Positions 56,611 through 63,999 of a stretch of 64,000 nt of DNA are shown here, in pieces. The stretch spans positions 992,001-1,056,000 of the forward strand of contig NZ_QHKM01000001.1 in the NCBI RefSeq assembly GCF_003258365.1, read 5' to 3'. Under the pieces are notes generated by a model. The model was not told where the DNA came from and made no database searches. It was given only the letters and a program-made list of their open reading frames with translations. The DNA is from Hymenobacter edaphi. GTDB taxonomy: Bacteria; Bacteroidota; Bacteroidia; Cytophagales; Hymenobacteraceae. The position numbers and the translations under genes were made by a program. How positions within the stretch are numbered: the stretch's first letter is position 1; the number at the start of each line of letters is the position of its first letter.

Positions 56611-57471
56611 CTAGTAGGCTTTCGACTGCCACTGCGTCAGGGTCACTTTCATGCCCGGCAGCTGGGTTTTAAACTTGTCGTCGTCCTTGTCGCCGGCTTT
56701 GATGGCGCGCCGGGCGCTTTCCACGGCCGAGAGGTAATCCTCCTTCTGGGCCATCAGGCGGGCTTTCAGCCAGAGGTTGGTGTAGCTCTCGTTCAGCTCG
56801 ATGGCCCGGTTGATGTAGCGCAGGGCCAGCTCGGCCTCGATCTGGTTCTGGATCAGGTAGTCGGCGGCGGCGGCCAGCAGCTGCGGGTCGTTGGGCGTTT
56901 TGCTCAGGGCCGCCTGCATGCTCTGCAGCACCTTGGCGTGCACGTTGGTGCGGATAAACACCGAAATGGTCTTTGTTTCCCACGACAGGTTCAGGCGGGC
57001 GGCATTGGGGCGCACGTCCGAAAACCAGTAGTGCAGCGATTCGCGCATGGGCGTGGTTTCGGGCAGCACCGCCACGCGCAGCACGTCGTCCTCGGCCTTG
57101 TAGCCTTCGCTGCCCCAGTGGTTGGTCACCTTGTTGAGGATGAGCTGCCAGTCGTGGTCGGCCGAGGGCAGCACGTAGAGCGAGTAGGTGCCCGCGGCCA
57201 CGGGCTTGCCGCTGAGGCGCACCGAGTCGGAAAAGGTGATGAGCGTGTTTTCGTTGGCGCCGGCCCGCCACACCTGCTCGTAGGGCACCAGCTGCCCCCA
57301 GACCTTGCGGTTTTTCACCCCGGGCGTGTGGTAGTCCACGGTCACGTCGGCCAGGCCGATGGTCTGGGTGACGACGGCGTGCGGGCTGGCCTGGGGCTGC
57401 ACGAATTGCTGGGCGTGGGCTTCGGCCGCCCCCAGAAAGGCGGCCAGAATCAGGCAAAAGAAGCGGGACAT
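56611..57471 (-). CDS. DUF2911 protein with C-terminal TPR-like helices
   Basis: 286 aa from the ATG at 57471 (MSRFFCLILAAFLGAAEAHA), which gives a clean signal peptide. The DUF2911 region (~25-175) has IGLADVTVDYHTPGVKNRKV, WRAGANENTLITFSDSVRL and GTYSLYVLPSADHDWQLILN. A helical part with a TPR-like unit (AELALRYINRAIELNESYTN) follows. Common in Bacteroidota; function unknown, exported. A TACCTTGG element lies on the minus strand at 57528-57521. Confidence 0.82.
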   Translation of the reverse strand: MSRFFCLILAAFLGAAEAHAQQFVQPQASPHAVVTQTIGLADVTVDYHTPGVKNRKVWGQLVPYEQVWRAGANENTLITFSDSVRLSGKPVAAGTYSLYVLPSADHDWQLILNKVTNHWGSEGYKAEDDVLRVAVLPETTPMRESLHYWFSDVRPNAARLNLSWETKTISVFIRTNVHAKVLQSMQAALSKTPNDPQLLAAAADYLIQNQIEAELALRYINRAIELNESYTNLWLKARLMAQKEDYLSAVESARRAIKAGDKDDDKFKTQLPGMKVTLTQWQSKAY

Positions 57472-57668
57472 GGCAGGGGCAATGGGTGTGGAGCTAACGC
57501 GGCGGGCCGAAAGAAAAGTGCCAAGGTACGACAAGCGGGCCGCCGCCGGGTTTAATTCACATCATCATGTGAGCCGCGGAGGCGGTGAGCAACTGCGCGT
57601 TAGAGGCGGAAAAAAATACGGCAATGGCAACTGCGCGGCGAAAAATTTCGGTATTTGATTTTGGCGCG

Positions 57669-57676
57669 TACCTTTG
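57669..57676 (+). promoter_or_regulatory. TACCTTTG, -7-like element of the his operon
   Basis: TAnnTTTG match 23 bp upstream of the leader ORF ATG and about 310 bp upstream of hisG. A TTG at the ideal upstream distance is not evident. Confidence 0.55.
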
Positions 57677-57699
57677 CCCGCATAATTCCCAATTCCCGC

Positions 57700-57813
57700 A
57701 TGTCCCTCGTCGCCTCGTTGCGCTACACTACGTCGCCGGCCGCCCCGCACTGGGCCGCCGCGCCGGGGCATGCCGGTCATCATCACCACCATTCCTCCCC
57801 GGGAGAGGAATAA
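57700..57813 (+). CDS. hisL: Histidine operon leader peptide (predicted)
   Basis: A 37-codon ORF from ATG 57700 to TAA 57811-57813, placed just after the his promoter. It contains seven His codons, five of them consecutive (57778-57792, HHHHH), two codons after another His (GHAGHHHHH). This is the hallmark of a his attenuation leader: a ribosome short of His-tRNA stalls on the run. No Shine-Dalgarno is seen, as is normal for this phylum. Not reported as a gene by length-based callers. Function is inferred from position and codon content. Confidence 0.75.
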   Translation: MSLVASLRYTTSPAAPHWAAAPGHAGHHHHHSSPGEE

Positions 57814-57985
57814 TTACGTATAGGCGTTCGGCTACGGTCCGAACCTACGTCGCCCCGCCGGTTTTGGCCCCTTGCCGCTCAAGAGCAGCTCTGCTTCGGA
57901 CCCCGGCCCCCTTTGATGATGTTTTCGACAACGAATCGGCGCGCTTTGCCGCGGTCGGCGTTGTTTCCCGCTTTTCCTTTTTCCC
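57778..57985 (+). promoter_or_regulatory. Putative his attenuator region
   Basis: After the His run come GTTCGG (57826-57831) pairing with CCGAAC (57839-57844), extendable outward by CGTA/TACG; a GATGATG at 57915-57921 that can pair with the His-codon CATCATC (57778-57784); and a GCCG-CGGT-CGGC stem near 57947 followed by a pyrimidine/T-rich tract up to the hisG ATG. Alternative pairings are possible, but the exact terminator cannot be fixed by eye. Confidence 0.45.
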
Positions 57986-58837
57986 ATGATTCGTCTGGCC
58001 ATCCAGAAATCTGGTCGTCTGAGCGAAGACTCGCTCGCCCTGATCCGCGAATGCGGCATCGGCTTTGTCAGCAGCTCCTACAAGCTCAAAACCGAAGCCA
58101 CCAACTTCCCCCTCGAAATCCTGTTCCTGCGCGACGACGACATTCCCGGCTACGTGCAGGACGGCGTGGCCGACCTGGGCATCGTGGGCCAGAACGTGCT
58201 GGCCGAAGCCGGCCTGCCCCAGCTCCAGGTCGAGGCGCTGGGCTTCAGCAAGTGCCGCCTCTCGCTGGCCGTGCCCCGCGGCGAGGCCTACAGCTCGGTG
58301 GCCGATCTGCAGGGCAAGAACATTGCCACCTCGTACCCCGAAATCCTGGGCCGCTACCTGGCCGGCGAAGGCGTGCAAGCCCAGCTGCACACCATCAGCG
58401 GCTCGGTGGAAATTGCCCCGAGCATCGGCCTCGCCGACGCCATCTGCGACATCGTGTCGTCGGGCTCCACCTTGCTCGGCAACGGGCTGCGCGAGGTGGA
58501 AACCGTGTTTCGCTCCGAGGCCGTGCTCATTGCCAGCCCGCAGCTGCCGCAGGAGAAGCAGCGCCTGCTCGAGCAGCTGCGCTTCCGCATGCAGGCCGTG
58601 CGCCGCGCCCGCCGCAACAAGTACATCCTGCTCAACGCCCCGGTGGCGGCCCTCGACGCGGTGAAGGCCCTGCTGCCGGGCATCAAGTCGCCCACGGTGA
58701 CGCCGCTGGCCGAAGCCGGTTGGGTGTCGGTGCAGTCGGTGGTCAACGAGGACGACTTCTGGCACATCACCGACCAGCTCAAGGCCGTCGGGGCCGAAGG
58801 CATCCTGGTGCTGCCCATTGAGAAGATGATTAGCTAA
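57986..58837 (+). CDS. hisG: ATP phosphoribosyltransferase (long form)
   Basis: 283 aa. IRLAIQKSGRLSEDSLALIR start, DLGIVGQNVLAE, phosphate loop SGSVEIAPSIGLADAICDIV, and a C-terminal ACT-like regulatory domain (~210-283, KSPTVTPLAEAGWVSVQSVV), so it is the feedback-inhibited long form that needs no HisZ. It catalyses the first step of histidine synthesis. Confidence 0.95.
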   Translation: MIRLAIQKSGRLSEDSLALIRECGIGFVSSSYKLKTEATNFPLEILFLRDDDIPGYVQDGVADLGIVGQNVLAEAGLPQLQVEALGFSKCRLSLAVPRGEAYSSVADLQGKNIATSYPEILGRYLAGEGVQAQLHTISGSVEIAPSIGLADAICDIVSSGSTLLGNGLREVETVFRSEAVLIASPQLPQEKQRLLEQLRFRMQAVRRARRNKYILLNAPVAALDAVKALLPGIKSPTVTPLAEAGWVSVQSVVNEDDFWHITDQLKAVGAEGILVLPIEKMIS

Positions 58838-58838
58838 G

Positions 58839-58950
58839 CGGTGAACTGGTGAGATGGTGAACGGGTGAGTGCCGTCCTGCCTGCGCCAACTGCGCGGGGC
58901 CGGCCTCCCGAACATCAAACTCACCCGTTCACCATCTCACCAGTTCACCG
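58839..58950. repeat. Perfect 32-bp inverted repeat filling the hisG-hisD gap
   Basis: Arms 58839-58870 (CGGTGAACTGGTGAGATGG...) and 58919-58950 are complementary at all 32 positions, with a 48-nt loop. The left arm starts 1 bp after the hisG stop; the right arm ends 2 bp before the hisD ATG. Confidence 0.92.
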
Positions 58951-58952
58951 AA

Positions 58953-60242
58953 ATGCAACGATTCAACTACCCCAGCCCGGCCCAGTGGCCGGCGCTGCAG
59001 CTGCGTCCGGCCCAGCAGGAAGCCGCCGAGGTGGAGCAGCGGGTGCGCGCCATCTTCGACGACGTGCGCCAGCGCGGCGACGCGGCCCTGCGCCACTACG
59101 CGGCCGCCTTCGACGGCGCCGCGCTGACCGAGTTACGGGTTTCCGCCGCCGAGCTGGCGGCCGCGGCCGCCGCGGTGCCCGCCGCGCTGCAGGCCGCCAT
59201 CCGGCAGGCCCGCCAGAACATCGAGCGGTTCCACGGCGCCCAGCGCGAGGCCGAGCTGCGCCTGGAAACCATGCCCGGGGTGGAGTGCTGGCGCCGCCCG
59301 GTGCCGGTGCAGCGCGTGGGCCTCTACATTCCGGGCGGCACGGCGCCGCTGTTCAGCACCCTGCTGATGCTGGGCGTGCCCGCCCGCCTGGCCGGCTGCC
59401 CCGACATCGTGCTGTGCACGCCCCCGACCAAGGACGGCTCCGTCAACCCGGTCATCCTCTTCACCGCTGCGCTGCTGGGCATTGATACCGTCATCAAGGC
59501 CGGCGGGGCCCAGGCCATTGCCGCCCTGACCGGCGGCACCGAATCCGTGCCGGCCGTCGACAAAATCTTCGGCCCCGGCAACCGCTACGTGACGGCCGCC
59601 AAGCAGCTGGCCGCCCAGCGCGGCGTGGCCATCGACATGCCGGCCGGCCCGTCGGAAGTACTGGTCATTGCCGATGCCTCGGCCAATCCGGTATTCGTGG
59701 CGGCCGACCTGCTCAGCCAGGCCGAGCACGGCCCCGACTCGCAGGTGGTGCTCTTGTCCGATTCGGCGCAAGTGCTCGACGCCGTGACGGCCGAGGTGCA
59801 GCGGCAGCTGGCCGAGCTGCCCCGCCGCGACGTGGCCGCGCAGGCCCTGCGGGAAAGCCGGGCCATCCTGCTCGGCAGCGCCGCCGACATGCTGCACTTC
59901 TCGAATCAGTACGCGCCCGAGCACCTGATCCTGGCCACCGACCACGCCGAGGCGCTGGCCGCCGACGTAACCAGCGCGGGCTCGGTGTTCCTGGGCCACC
60001 TCACGCCCGAAGCCGCCGGCGACTACGCCTCCGGCACCAACCACACCCTGCCCACCAACGGCTACGCCCGCAGCTACAGCGGGGTGTCGCTCGACTCGTT
60101 CGTGAAGAAAATCACCTTCCAGCGCATCACCCCCGCGGGGCTGCGGGCCCTCGGGCCGGTGGTCGAAACCATGGCCGAAGCCGAGGGCCTGCGCGCCCAC
60201 GCCCGGGCCGTGACCCTGCGGCTGGACTCAATTGGTAGTTAA
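58953..60242 (+). CDS. hisD: Histidinol dehydrogenase
   Basis: 429 aa from ATG 58953 (MQRFNYPSPAQWPALQLRPA). VGLYIPGGTAPLFSTLLMLG, IFGPGNRYVTAAKQLA, DMPAGPSEVLVIAD, AEHGPDSQVVLL and NQYAPEHLIL carry the NAD, zinc and catalytic Glu/His residues. It catalyses the last two steps to histidine. Confidence 0.95.
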   Translation: MQRFNYPSPAQWPALQLRPAQQEAAEVEQRVRAIFDDVRQRGDAALRHYAAAFDGAALTELRVSAAELAAAAAAVPAALQAAIRQARQNIERFHGAQREAELRLETMPGVECWRRPVPVQRVGLYIPGGTAPLFSTLLMLGVPARLAGCPDIVLCTPPTKDGSVNPVILFTAALLGIDTVIKAGGAQAIAALTGGTESVPAVDKIFGPGNRYVTAAKQLAAQRGVAIDMPAGPSEVLVIADASANPVFVAADLLSQAEHGPDSQVVLLSDSAQVLDAVTAEVQRQLAELPRRDVAAQALRESRAILLGSAADMLHFSNQYAPEHLILATDHAEALAADVTSAGSVFLGHLTPEAAGDYASGTNHTLPTNGYARSYSGVSLDSFVKKITFQRITPAGLRALGPVVETMAEAEGLRAHARAVTLRLDSIGS

Positions 60243-60336
60243 CAAGCAGCCCTGAACAATGAGCAACCGGGGCAGCGGCGCTTGAGCCGGCTGCCACCCG
60301 CAGTGCTCATCGTTCGTTGGCAATTGATCATTGAAC
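60232..60336. repeat. Word-type inverted repeat in the hisD-hisC gap
   Basis: GAACAATGAGCA (60254-60265) pairs with TGCTCATCGTTC (60304-60315) with one mismatch; GGCAGC and GCTGCC pair inside. Outer CAATTG...AAC words near 60226-60247 (covering the hisD stop) match the complement of GTTGGCAATTGATCATTG at 60317-60334. Confidence 0.65.
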
Positions 60337-60339
60337 GCA

Positions 60340-61389
60340 ATGAACCTCGACGAACTCATCCGGCCCAACGTGCGGGCCATGAAACCCTACGCCTCGGCCC
60401 GCGACGAATTTCAGGGCACGGCGCAGGTCATGCTCGACGCGAACGAGAACAGCCTGGGCTCGGTCGGCGGGCAGGCCTTCAACCGCTACCCCGACCCGCT
60501 GCAGCGCGCCGTGAAGGCCGAAGTGGCCCGCCTCAAGCAGGTCGGCCCCGGGCAGATTTTCCTCGGCAACGGCTCCGACGAAGCCATTGACCTGCTGCTG
60601 CGCCTGACCTGCGTGCCGGCCCGGGACAGCATCCTGATTTTGCCGCCGACCTACGGCATGTACGAAGTGGCTGCCAACCTCAACGACGTGGCCATCGAGC
60701 GGGTGCCGCTGACGGCCGACTTCCAGCTTTCCGACGACGCTATTACTAAGGTGTTGGCCTCGCCGGCCAAGCTGGTGTTCGTCTGCTCGCCCAACAACCC
60801 CACCGGCAACCTGCTGCACGCGGCGGCGGTGGAGCGCATCCTGCGCGGCTTCCCGGGCCTGGTCGTGGTCGACGAAGCCTACAGCGACTTTGCCGCCGCG
60901 CCGAGCTGGACTTCGCGCCTCGCGGAGTTTGAGAACCTGGTGGTGCTGCAGACGTTTTCCAAGGCCTGGGGCCTGGCCGGGCTGCGCCTGGGCATGGCCT
61001 TCGCCTCGCCCGCGCTTATCGGCTACCTCAACAAAATCAAGCCGCCCTACAACGTCTCGGAAACCACCCAGCAGCACGCGCTGGCCGGCCTGGCCGATAC
61101 CACTGGCTTCGAGCAGATGCGCCGGGCGCTGCTGGCCGGGCGGGAGCAACTGGCCGCCGCCCTGCCCGCCGTCGGCATCGTCGAGCACGTGTTTCCGTCC
61201 GACGCGAACTTCCTGCTGGTGCGTTTCCGGCCCGATGCCACCGCCGTGTACGAGTACCTGCTCGGGCGCGGCATCGTGGTGCGCAACCGCACCACCCAAC
61301 CCGGCTGCGCGGGCTGCCTGCGCCTGACCGTGGGCACGCCCGCCGAAAACCAGCAGCTGCTCGCCGCCCTGCACCAGTACCCCGGCTAG
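60340..61389 (+). CDS. hisC: Histidinol-phosphate aminotransferase
   Basis: 349 aa from ATG 60340 ([20 protein letters not shown]). [34 protein letters not shown] and the PLP-lysine motif [14 protein letters not shown] are diagnostic. It transaminates imidazole-acetol phosphate. A 64-bp GC-rich gap without repeats follows. Confidence 0.95.
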
Positions 61390-61453
61390 GCCCTTGCCGG
61401 CCCGCCCGTTCTTTCCGACCACGACCACCGCGCCCCACGACGGCGCGCCTGCC

Positions 61454-62557
61454 ATGAAAAAAGTACTCTTCATCGACCGCGACGGGACCATCCTCGTCGA
61501 GCCGCAACCCAGCCAGCAGGTCGACTCCTTCGACAAGTTTCAGTTTCTGCCCGGTGCCATCACCGGCCTCGCGCGCATTGCCCGCGAGCTGGACTACGAG
61601 CTGGTGCTGGTCACCAACCAGGACGGCCTCGGCACCGACTCCTTTCCCGAGGATACGTTCTGGCCCTGCCAGAACCTGATGCTCGACATTCTGCGCGGGG
61701 AAGGAGTGGAGTTTGCCGCCGCCCTCATCGACCGCAGCTTCCCCCACGAAAACCAGCCCACCCGCAAGCCCGGCCTCGGCCTGCTCGGTGAGTACCTCGA
61801 CCCCGCCAACGGCTACGACCTGCCGAATTCCTACGTGCTCGGCGACCGGCTCACCGACGTGCAGCTGGCCGAGAACCTGGGCTGCCGCGCCGTCCTGCTC
61901 AGCGACGAGCTCAGCGACGAGCGCGCCGCGCTGACCACCACCAACTGGGACGCGATATACCAGTTCCTGCGCCTGCCCGCCCGCCAAGCCGTGGTACAAC
62001 GCGACACCAACGAAACTAAAATCAGCGTCGAGCTGAACCTGGACGGCAGCGGCCGGCACAGTATAAAAACCGGACTCGGGTTTTTCGACCACATGCTCGA
62101 TCAGCTGGCCAAGCACAGCGGGGTGGATATGCGGGTGCAGGTGCAAGGCGACCTGCACATCGACGAGCACCACACCATCGAAGACGCCGCCATTGCCATC
62201 GGTGAAGCTTTCAGCCAGGCCCTCGGTGACAAGCGCGGCCTGGCGCGTTACGGCTTCCTATTGCCCATGGACGACGCGCTGGCCCAGGCGGCCATCGACT
62301 TCTCCGGCCGCCCCTGGCTGGTGTGGGATGCCCACTTCAAGCGGGAAAAAATCGGCGACATGCCCACGGAAATGTTTTACCATTTCTTTAAAAGCTTCGC
62401 CGATGCGGCCCGCTGCAACCTCAACGTCAAGTGCGAGGGCGACAACGAACACCACAAGATCGAAGCCATTTTCAAGGCGGTGGCCAAAGCTATCAAAGCC
62501 GCTTTGCAGCGCGACGCCAGCAAGATGGAAATTCCCAGCACCAAAGGGGTGCTGTAG
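61454..62557 (+). CDS. hisB: Bifunctional histidinol-phosphatase / imidazoleglycerol-phosphate dehydratase
   Basis: 367 aa from ATG 61454 ([20 protein letters not shown]). The N-terminal HAD phosphatase has the FIDRDGTI nucleophile motif and [17 protein letters not shown] (residues 1-165). The C-terminal IGPD domain has [34 protein letters not shown] and [12 protein letters not shown] with the manganese-binding histidines. The fused form is as in enterics and Bacteroidota. Confidence 0.95.
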
Positions 62558-62565
62558 GCTTTACA

Positions 62566-62668
62566 CAAATGTTGAAACAAATGGATAAGTCCTGGTTTCC
62601 GGGTTTGCAGCCAATGCAAGGCAGGCAGATGGAAAGGAAAGCCATGTTTATTCATTTGTTAAACATGG
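62566..62668. repeat. Word-type inverted repeat in the hisB-hisH gap
   Basis: Left arm 62566-62588 (CAAATGTTGAAACAAATGGA) and right arm 62648-62668 (TTATTCATTTGTTAAACATG) match at about 17 of 20 positions as complements. The DNA is more AT-rich than the operon. Confidence 0.7.
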
Positions 62669-62681
62669 TTTGAATCAGCAA

Positions 62682-63269
62682 ATGGAAATAGCCGTCATTG
62701 ATTATAAGGGAGGCAACGTGCAGTCGGTGCTGTTTGCCCTGGAGCGCCTCGGCGTGCAGGCCACCCTGACCGCGGAACCCGACGCCATTCGCCGGGCCGA
62801 CAAAGTCATCTTTCCGGGCGAAGGCGAAGCCGCCTCGGCCATGCGCGAGCTGCGTGCCCAGGGCCTCGACCAGCTGCTGCCCACCCTGACGCAGCCCTTC
62901 CTGGGCGTGTGCCTGGGCATGCAGCTGCTGGGCCGGCACAGCGAAGAAGGCGACACCGAGCTGCTCGGCATCCTGCCCTTCGACGTGCAGCGCTTCCAAC
63001 CCGACGCGCAGCACAAGGTGCCGCACATGGGCTGGAACACCCTGCGTAACCTTCGCTCCCCGCTCTTCCGGGGGCTGCGCGAAGACGACTACGTGTACTT
63101 CGTGCACAGCTACTACGCGCCGGTGGGCGCCTACACCATTGCCGAGGGCGCCCACCCGGGCCCGTTCAGCGCGGCCGTGCAGCACCAGAACTTCTACGCC
63201 GTGCAGTTTCACGCCGAAAAGAGCGGCCCCGTCGGCACGCGCATCCTCCAAAACTTCCTCGACCTGTAA
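62682..63269 (+). CDS. hisH: Imidazole glycerol phosphate synthase, glutaminase subunit
   Basis: 195 aa from ATG 62682 (MEIAVIDYKGGNVQSVLFAL). Class I amidotransferase triad: nucleophile in PFLGVCLGMQLLG, and His/Glu in VQFHAEKSGPVG. It supplies ammonia to HisF, which should lie just beyond the window. Confidence 0.94.
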   Translation: MEIAVIDYKGGNVQSVLFALERLGVQATLTAEPDAIRRADKVIFPGEGEAASAMRELRAQGLDQLLPTLTQPFLGVCLGMQLLGRHSEEGDTELLGILPFDVQRFQPDAQHKVPHMGWNTLRNLRSPLFRGLREDDYVYFVHSYYAPVGAYTIAEGAHPGPFSAAVQHQNFYAVQFHAEKSGPVGTRILQNFLDL

Positions 63270-63279
63270 TCGACCCGCC

Positions 63280-63999
63280 ATGGAAATCATTCCCGCCATC
63301 GACCTGATCGGGGGCCAGTGCGTGCGCCTGACCGAGGGCGACTTCGCCCAGCAAACCACCTACGATTCCGACCCGCTGGCCGTGGCCCAGCGCTTCGAGC
63401 AGCACGGGCTGCGCCGCCTGCACCTGGTCGACCTCGACGGGGCCCGGGCCAAGCAGCCCGTCAACCTGGCCGTGCTTGAGCGCCTGGCCCGCCACACCAC
63501 GCTGCACATCGACTTCGGCGGCGGGCTGCAGCACGAGGACGCCGTGCGCCAGGCCTTCGACGCGGGCGCTGCCCAGATTACGGCCGGCAGCATTGCCGTG
63601 CGGGAACCCGAAACCGTGCAGCACTGGCTGCGCACTTTCGGGGCCGGGCGCATCATCATCGGGGCCGATTTTCGGGATGAGCACATTGCCATCAACGCCT
63701 GGGCTGAGCAATCGGAGCGGACCCTGCAGGAGTTTGTGGCCGGGTACCTGGCCGCCGGGGCCCATACCTTCGTGTGCACCGACGTGCGCAAGGACGGCAA
63801 GCTGCAGGGGCCGGCGCTGGAAACCTACCAGCAGCTGCGCGGCCAGCTGCCGGCGGCCCGGTTGGTGGCCAGCGGCGGCGTGACCACCGTGGCCGATCTG
63901 CAAGCCCTGGCGGCGCTGGGCATGCACGGGGCCATCATCGGCAAAGCCATCTACGAGGGCACCATCAGCCTGGCCGAGCTGGCGCCCTTCGTGGCGTAA
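63280..63999 (+). CDS. hisA: ProFAR isomerase (phosphoribosylformimino-AICAR-phosphate isomerase)
   Basis: 239 aa from ATG 63280 (MEIIPAIDLIGGQCVRLTEG), 10 bp after hisH. Catalytic Asp in PAIDLIGG and Asp in FVCTDVRKDGKLQG, phosphate-binding IDFGGGLQHED and VASGGVTTVADL. Complete; the stop is one base before the window edge, and the operon very probably continues. Confidence 0.95.
   Translation: MEIIPAIDLIGGQCVRLTEGDFAQQTTYDSDPLAVAQRFEQHGLRRLHLVDLDGARAKQPVNLAVLERLARHTTLHIDFGGGLQHEDAVRQAFDAGAAQITAGSIAVREPETVQHWLRTFGAGRIIIGADFRDEHIAINAWAEQSERTLQEFVAGYLAAGAHTFVCTDVRKDGKLQGPALETYQQLRGQLPAARLVASGGVTTVADLQALAALGMHGAIIGKAIYEGTISLAELAPFVA

What the first reader, a model, noticed from the sequence alone, without database searches (positions are those of the whole stretch)
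57669..57985. Unannotated his leader peptide with five consecutive His codons and putative attenuator
Directly after the TACCTTTG element is a 37-codon ORF (57700-57813) with HHHHH at 57778-57792 and seven His in total, followed by a ~170-nt structured region before hisG. GATGATG at 57915 can pair with the CATCATC His codons, and GTTCGG/CCGAAC forms a stem at 57826-57844. This is the arrangement of enteric his attenuation, here in a GC-rich Bacteroidota without Shine-Dalgarno sequences, so the mechanics may differ (no clear U-run terminator; hisG start sequestration is an alternative).
Basis: partly seen in the sequence, partly recalled or inferred. Interest (0 to 1): 0.75.

Follow-up and report, generated by a model that had tools for sequence, protein, structure and literature searches.

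The report
Histidine-sensing leader peptide before hisG
Just upstream of the histidine-making genes lies a tiny gene rich in histidine codons, conserved across much of the Bacteroidota, which very probably lets the cell sense histidine shortage while translating it; in this bacterial family the stop signal that should follow is unusual or missing.

Summary
The His run does not arise in 20,000 shuffles. Relatives settle the identity: a His-rich leader ORF precedes hisG in essentially all Hymenobacteraceae loci examined and in most other Bacteroidota with the long hisG, usually just downstream of TAnnTTTG. In other Bacteroidota, 27 of 34 loci carry a U-run terminator before hisG, often with an antiterminator strand in the leader ORF: textbook attenuation. 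In the window's lineage (0 of 9) the U-run terminator is absent. Instead there is an invariant hairpin at the leader stop codon (57791-57811), found once per genome in the genus, a motif at near-fixed spacing, and further hairpins with compensatory change in relatives. The His-codon/GATGATG pairing is kept in only part of the genus, so it is not the general switch. Best reading: a genuine His leader-peptide attenuator whose RNA OFF step is unresolved here. The kind is known (enteric hisL; Flavobacteriaceae hisG 5' elements reported in 2021); the Hymenobacteraceae form is a variant.

The parts
57646..57676 (+). Bacteroidota-type promoter: weak -33 element TTTC (57646-57649) and -7 element TACCTTTG (57669-57676); start of transcription likely near 57681 (inferred)
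   Evidence: TAnnTTTG lies 12-33 nt upstream of the leader ATG in almost every relative that has the leader; no experiment
57700..57813 (+). his leader peptide ORF, 37 codons, MSLVASLRYTTSPAAPHWAAAPGHAGHHHHHSSPGEE*
   Evidence: same ORF in 9 of 9 clade-A loci; in pairwise counts the last 14 codons differ 31 times at codon position 3, 12 at position 1, 0 at position 2
57778..57792 (+). five consecutive His codons CAT CAT CAC CAC CAT (regulatory codons)
   Evidence: 0 of 20,000 shuffles
57791..57811 (+). P1 hairpin ATTCCTC-CCCGGGA-GAGGAAT, from the last His codon into the stop codon
   Evidence: pattern CATTCCTCN{3,7}GAGGAA occurs exactly once in each of the 8 genus genomes, at this place, reversed control 0 there; conserved into Pontibacter, Rufibacter and Cyclobacteriaceae
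57817..57823 (+). CGTATAG, counterpart of the CATATNG motif whose G lies 15-16 nt after GAGGAA in relatives (13-15 nt in clade A); pause-site-like (inferred)
   Evidence: invariant columns C30-T34 and G36 in 26 main-clade Hymenobacter
57826..57844 (+). P2 hairpin GTTCGG-CTACGGT-CCGAAC
   Evidence: replaced by GCATCCGGC...GCCGGATGC in L005; covariation of the positional counterpart in main-clade Hymenobacter
57857..57907 (+). P3, GCCGG...CCGGC with a variable inner hairpin; weak
   Evidence: seen by eye in clade A; no statistical support in the window's clade
57915..57921 (+). GATGATG, able to pair with CATCATC; kept in only 5 of 9 clade-A loci
57928..57964 (+). candidate terminator hairpin T, ACAACG...CGTTGT
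   Evidence: hairpin in the same place with changed sequence in L004 and L033, but energy z-scores only +0.3 to -2.7; weak
57965..57977 (+). tail TTCCCGCTTTTCC after T; interrupted U tract
   Evidence: fails the strict U-run test
57986..58837 (+). hisG, ATP phosphoribosyltransferase (long form, 283 aa)
   Evidence: Pfam HisG and HisG_C
58902..63999 (+). rest of the operon inside the window: hisD, hisC, hisB, hisH, hisA
   Evidence: Pfam Histidinol_dh, Aminotran_1_2, IGPD, GATase, His_biosynth; hisC and hisH named from family and position

Best explanation
The 5' region of this his operon is a histidine-sensing leader-peptide attenuator. RNA polymerase starts just after TACCTTTG (57669) and a ribosome translates the short ORF. 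When charged tRNA-His is plentiful the ribosome runs through the His codons to the stop; when it is scarce it stalls on them. A stalled ribosome would cover the 5' arm of the stop-codon hairpin P1, so P1 cannot form, the RNA downstream folds differently, and transcription reaches hisG. With histidine present most transcripts end before hisG. Shown by sequence: the ORF, its promoter element, its conservation and coding constraint, P1, and (in relatives) further hairpins with compensatory change. Inferred: translation, stalling, and that the outcome is premature end of transcription. Unresolved in this lineage: which element ends transcription, since the U-run terminator seen in other Bacteroidota is missing. 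Candidates are the imperfect-tail hairpin T at 57928-57977, or Rho.
For: His-rich ORF before hisG in 9/9 clade-A loci, essentially all Hymenobacteraceae loci examined and most other Bacteroidota loci with the long hisG; chance excluded. His is the residue most often clustered in these upstream stretches (141 of 199 loci). Promoter element just upstream of the ORF and none downstream of it in the window's genus. Changes in the His end are mostly synonymous. In other Bacteroidota 27/34 loci have a strict U-run terminator, and in the group with clear terminators 14 of 31 show ORF:terminator-arm complementarity at p<=0.05, median z -1.64. Covariation in main-clade Hymenobacter: 8 pairs with two-sided changes, 0 of 500 shuffles as high. 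The same 8 genomes carry a Trp-codon leader plus terminator-like hairpin before trpE, so this lineage appears to use ribosome-mediated attenuation.
Against: No expression data. In the window's clade there is no strict U-run terminator (0/9), no ORF:terminator-arm complementarity (0/9 at p<=0.05), and the folding energies of P2 and T are hardly beyond shuffles. Equilibrium folds with a ribosome placed at the His codons or at the stop give no clear two-state switch for clades A or B.
Confidence: 0.82

Rival explanations
1. Same sensor, but termination is by Rho rather than by an intrinsic terminator: the long C-rich leader exposes or hides a Rho loading site depending on where the ribosome stops.
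For: U-run terminator missing in clades A, D, E and P and nearly all of B; rho present in 8/8 genus genomes; the leader-hisG stretch has more C than G in all 9 clade-A loci, e.g. 60 C and 44 G in the window.
Against: No Rho-site test was made; the C excess is mild; the trp leader of the same genomes has a GC-rich hairpin with an equally imperfect U tract (GUUGCUUUU), so an imperfect tail does not exclude intrinsic termination.
Confidence: 0.3
2. The leader acts on translation: without Shine-Dalgarno sequences, alternative pairing hides or frees the hisG start.
Against: That pairing would hide the hisG start exactly when histidine is short, the wrong sense; it is not conserved outside part of clade A; relatives have U-run terminators in this interval; the leader-to-hisG distance ranges from about 70 to 240 nt.
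Confidence: 0.07
3. The ORF encodes a small functional (for example metal-binding) His-rich protein rather than a sensor.
For: Peptide end GHAGHHHHHSS conserved in clade A.
Against: Everything but the His cluster differs freely between clades (HHSSF, LWEAGLCAGC, HHFHHSS, HRRHHRGC); the ORF always lies before hisG; its C-terminal codons also build the P1 hairpin.
Confidence: 0.03
4. Chance His run in a GC-rich intergenic region.
For: None.
Against: 0/20,000 shuffles; conserved across families.
Confidence: 0.01

Closest known systems
Enteric his attenuator (hisL; Rfam RF00514 His_leader)
   Same: His-run leader ORF directly upstream of hisG; short hairpin at the leader stop codon directly after the His codons (E. 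coli CCUGA..UCAGG around UAG; here AUUCCUC..GAGGAAU into UAA); further hairpins before hisG
   Different: No Rfam hit, no U-run terminator, G-10Y-1G+1 pause consensus not conserved, Bacteroidota promoter, no sequence relation, near-leaderless ORF in some relatives
Structured 5' element of hisG in Flavobacterium psychrophilum and other Flavobacteriaceae (PMC9723704)
   Same: Same gene and phylum; that paper reports strong clues for leader-peptide attenuation before amino-acid operons and a conserved hisG 5' element without Rfam hit
   Different: Many loci outside Cytophagales (Flavobacteriales-type) have a U-run terminator and an antiterminator strand in the ORF (..CSQAR); the Hymenobacteraceae loci mostly do not
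Bacteroid-trp RNA (RF01692; PMC2864571)
   Same: A predicted cis-regulatory RNA of Bacteroidetes; its link to trp operons and Trp-codon leaders is recalled, not read there
   Different: No RF01692 hit in the his loci tested or in the trp leaders L214 and L216 of this genus at the gathering score

Membership tests
Ribosome-mediated amino-acid leader-peptide attenuator (general kind) | Short ORF upstream of a biosynthetic operon with a run of codons for the product amino acid | tested here: met
Ribosome-mediated amino-acid leader-peptide attenuator (general kind) | ORF is transcribed: promoter upstream of it, none between ORF and first gene | tested here: met
   TAnnTTTG upstream and none downstream in the window's genus; by sequence only
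Ribosome-mediated amino-acid leader-peptide attenuator (general kind) | Intrinsic terminator with a U run between ORF and first gene | tested here: not met
   0/9 in the window's clade, 1/26 clade B, 0/30 clade P; met in 27/34 other Bacteroidota. A hairpin with an imperfect tail is present
Ribosome-mediated amino-acid leader-peptide attenuator (general kind) | Mutually exclusive antiterminator that depends on ribosome position | tested here: inconclusive
   clade A 0/9 at p<=0.05; loci with clear terminators 14/31; equilibrium folds show no clear switch, nor for the E. coli control
Ribosome-mediated amino-acid leader-peptide attenuator (general kind) | Expression responds to the amino acid or its charged tRNA | not testable with these tools
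   needs RNA measurement
Rfam His_leader RF00514 (enteric his attenuator) | Score above the family's cut-off | tested here: not met
   no hit for 57300-58200 even at E up to 5; E. coli control hits at 131.6 bits
Rfam His_leader RF00514 (enteric his attenuator) | Pause hairpin at the leader stop codon with a G-10 Y-1 G+1 pause site | tested here: not met
   hairpin present, but about 14 nt to the invariant G (E. coli 11), position -1 is A in Pontibacter, G-10 not conserved (consensus from PMC9291695)
Bacteroid-trp RF01692 | Rfam match | tested here: not met
   no hit in the window leader or in representative his loci

The most novel reading that the evidence does not exclude
Hymenobacteraceae and Cyclobacteriaceae have replaced the U-run terminator of their his attenuator by a different ribosome-responsive switch, built on an invariant stop-codon hairpin and a CAUAUNG element at near-fixed distance that acts as a programmed RNA polymerase pause or factor site.
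Probability: 0.28. Interest if true: 0.62.

Novelty: new variant of a known kind. Interest (0 to 1): 0.42.

Why it matters
It shows that histidine-codon sensing by leader translation is widespread in Bacteroidota, a phylum whose ribosomes mostly ignore Shine-Dalgarno sequences (general knowledge) and where such control has hardly been described. The Hymenobacteraceae version keeps the sensor but lacks the textbook terminator, so it gives a natural test of what the RNA half of an attenuator really needs. It has no match in Rfam 15 and could be added as a family.

Tried and rejected
GATGATG:CATCATC as the general switch: rejected, absent in L005-L008. Rfam membership: no match. Equilibrium folds with the ribosome at the last His codon, at the stop or absent: no clear two-state switch for clades A and B; the E. 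coli control also keeps its terminator in every state, so such folds cannot decide. ORF:terminator-arm complementarity: positive as a group where terminators are clear, negative in clades A, B, C, D, E and P. Folding z-scores of P2 and T in clade A: not significant in most loci in this GC-rich DNA. Searches for other leaders: the ilvD family was absent from the genus, and the thrA start lay outside the fetched stretches.

Full report
What is in the sequence. All the coordinates in the finding are correct. TACCTTTG (57669-57676) is followed at 57700 by an ATG that opens a 37-codon ORF, MSLVASLRYTTSPAAPHWAAAPGHAGHHHHHSSPGEE, ending with TAA at 57811-57813. hisG begins at 57986 and is followed by hisD, hisC, hisB, hisH and hisA in the window (Pfam). 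The gene upstream is divergent and codes for a DUF2911 protein. In 20,000 dinucleotide shuffles of the 310 nt before hisG no run of five His codons appeared in any frame.

Relatives. A family sample, 80 named contigs and phylum and order samples were used to read upstream of hisG. A His-rich ORF is found in essentially every hisG locus of Hymenobacteraceae examined, in different local forms: GHAGHHHHHSSPGEE (window genus and H. gummosus, clade A), AHHHxHGHHSSF (main Hymenobacter, clade B), HHRHHHLWEAGLCAGC (clade C), PQHHHHHL (D), GHGHHHLHR (E), HHFHHSS (Pontibacter, Rufibacter and some Cyclobacteriaceae; P). Most Spirosoma loci (HRRHHRGC), Chitinophaga and most loci from other classes and orders of the phylum with the long hisG have one too. 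Several Cytophagales loci, for example Dyadobacter, Larkinella and Fibrella, showed none, and so did the loci with a distant hisG, so the leader is not universal. Over 199 distinct loci 141 have at least four His in ten residues, against 1.5% of shuffles, and His is the most frequent such residue.

Transcription. TAnnTTTG, the Bacteroidota -7 element, lies 12-33 nt before the leader ATG in nearly all loci with the leader, and none lies between leader and hisG in the window's genus. In clade C and Spirosoma the ATG begins 4-8 nt after the element, so the leader ORF may be nearly leaderless there (inferred).

Coding constraint. In clade A pairwise comparisons the last 14 codons differ 31 times at codon position 3, 12 times at position 1 and never at position 2, as expected of a selected peptide with synonymous drift.

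Classical attenuators in the rest of the phylum. Of 34 other Bacteroidota loci 27 have a strict terminator (hairpin plus at least six U in seven) between leader and hisG. Examples: Chitinophaga AGGCUUACCG..CGGUAAGCCU-UUUUUU with CGGUAAGC in the ORF; L128 and its like ACCCGUUUGA..UCAAACGGGU-UUUUU with CUCAAGCG in the ORF; L144 and L151, where ORF strand and terminator arm differ together, GCGCCGG/CCGGCGC against GCGUCGG/CCGACGC. Among the 31 loci with clear terminators 14 have ORF:terminator-arm duplexes stronger than 95% of shuffles. This is the textbook arrangement and supports reading the window's ORF as a sensor.

The window's lineage is different. No strict U-run terminator in clade A (0/9), one in clade B (1/26), none in P (0/30), D or E; four of eleven in C. 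Instead three features recur. First, hairpin P1, AUUCCUC..GAGGAAU, runs from the last His codon into the stop codon. The pattern CATTCCTCN{3,7}GAGGAA occurs once per genome in all eight genus genomes, each time at this place, and the reversed control is zero there. Second, CATATNG follows P1 at near-fixed spacing, its G 15-16 nt after GAGGAA in clades B and most of P; clade A has CGTATAGG, CGTATAAG or CTACATG at about the same distance. Third, hairpins P2 and P3 in clade B show compensatory change: 8 of 23 pairs with changes on both sides, against a shuffle mean of 3.9 and 0 of 500 shuffles as high; sliding the partner strand destroys it. P1 itself hardly varies and so gives little covariation evidence.

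What P1 may be. The E. coli his leader has a small hairpin around its stop codon directly after the His codons, and it is needed for the hisL pause (PMC9291695). P1 has the same place. But the spacing is about 14 nt rather than 11, and the G-10Y-1G+1 consensus is not kept, so 'pause hairpin' is an analogy, not a membership.

The OFF step. Immediately before hisG a hairpin (57928-57964) with an interrupted U tail UUCCCGCUUUUCC recurs with changed sequence (L004 CGGUGC..GCACCG; L033 CGACGCCG..CGGCGUCG), but its energy is not beyond shuffles in most clade-A loci (z +0.3 to -2.7). The trp leader of the same genomes, WWW plus AAGCCCGGC..GCCGGGCUU-GUUGCUUUU, also has an imperfect U tail, so intrinsic termination with a poor U run is possible in this lineage. 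Rho is encoded in all eight genomes. I cannot decide between these.

Prior knowledge. A Flavobacterium psychrophilum transcriptome study reports clues of leader-peptide attenuation before amino-acid operons and a conserved hisG 5' element without Rfam match (PMC9723704). A Bacteroides study notes leader-peptide-like ORFs in long 5' UTRs (PMC7366714), and a study of his genes in the Bacteroidota superphylum discusses attenuation only for enterics in the passages found (PMC8305728). Rfam has Bacteroid-trp (PMC2864571) but nothing that matches here. Subscription papers could not be searched, so earlier predictions of Bacteroidota his attenuators may exist.

Verdict. Observation confirmed. A histidine leader-peptide attenuator is the right kind of thing; the specific GATGATG switch is not supported across the genus; the Hymenobacteraceae form is a variant whose terminating step is open.

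Noticed in passing
window 57558-57571: CACATCATCATGTG, an inverted-repeat element kept in L001, L002, L004, L005 and L006 between the his promoter and the divergent DUF2911 gene, next to a conserved GCCAAGGTA (TACCTTGG on the - strand); perhaps an operator of the divergent promoter.
   Followed up: no
L216 (own genome) and L211-L215, L217, L218, upstream of trpE: Trp leader ORF with WWW (WW in L214) and conserved hairpin AAGCCCGGC..GCCGGGCTT-GTTGC in the 8 genomes of the genus; not matched by Rfam Bacteroid-trp in the two tested.
   Followed up: partly
L034, L035, L036, L046, L063 and relatives (Rufibacter/Adhaeribacter group); Spirosoma loci L057, L058, L061, L062: A second TAnnTTTG element between the His leader and hisG, about 24-47 nt before hisG (132-142 nt in Spirosoma), which could let transcription bypass the attenuator.
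   Followed up: partly
L014, L020, L025, L061, L062 upstream of hisG: Leader ATG only 4-6 nt after the TAnnTTTG element: the leader peptide may be translated from a leaderless or near-leaderless mRNA.
   Followed up: no
main Hymenobacter loci such as L018, L019, L021, L026, L096, L098, L108: A long-range pairing GACCCCGUUGGG with CCCAACG-n4-GGGUC encloses P2, P3 and a further hairpin, making a large multibranch structure between leader and hisG.
   Followed up: partly
genus genomes G000-G007: No match to the ilvD family TIGR00110 in any of the 8 genomes although it is found in all 14 control genomes; possible loss or replacement of branched-chain amino-acid synthesis.
   Followed up: no
family genomes G008 and G013 (genus g2), G071: Near-complete Hymenobacteraceae genomes without a hisG match: possible histidine auxotrophs.
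   Followed up: no
L064 (Cesiribacter sp. SM1): Leader ORF with two separate His clusters, HHHHCLFFTAPHHWQAVHHHHA.
   Followed up: no
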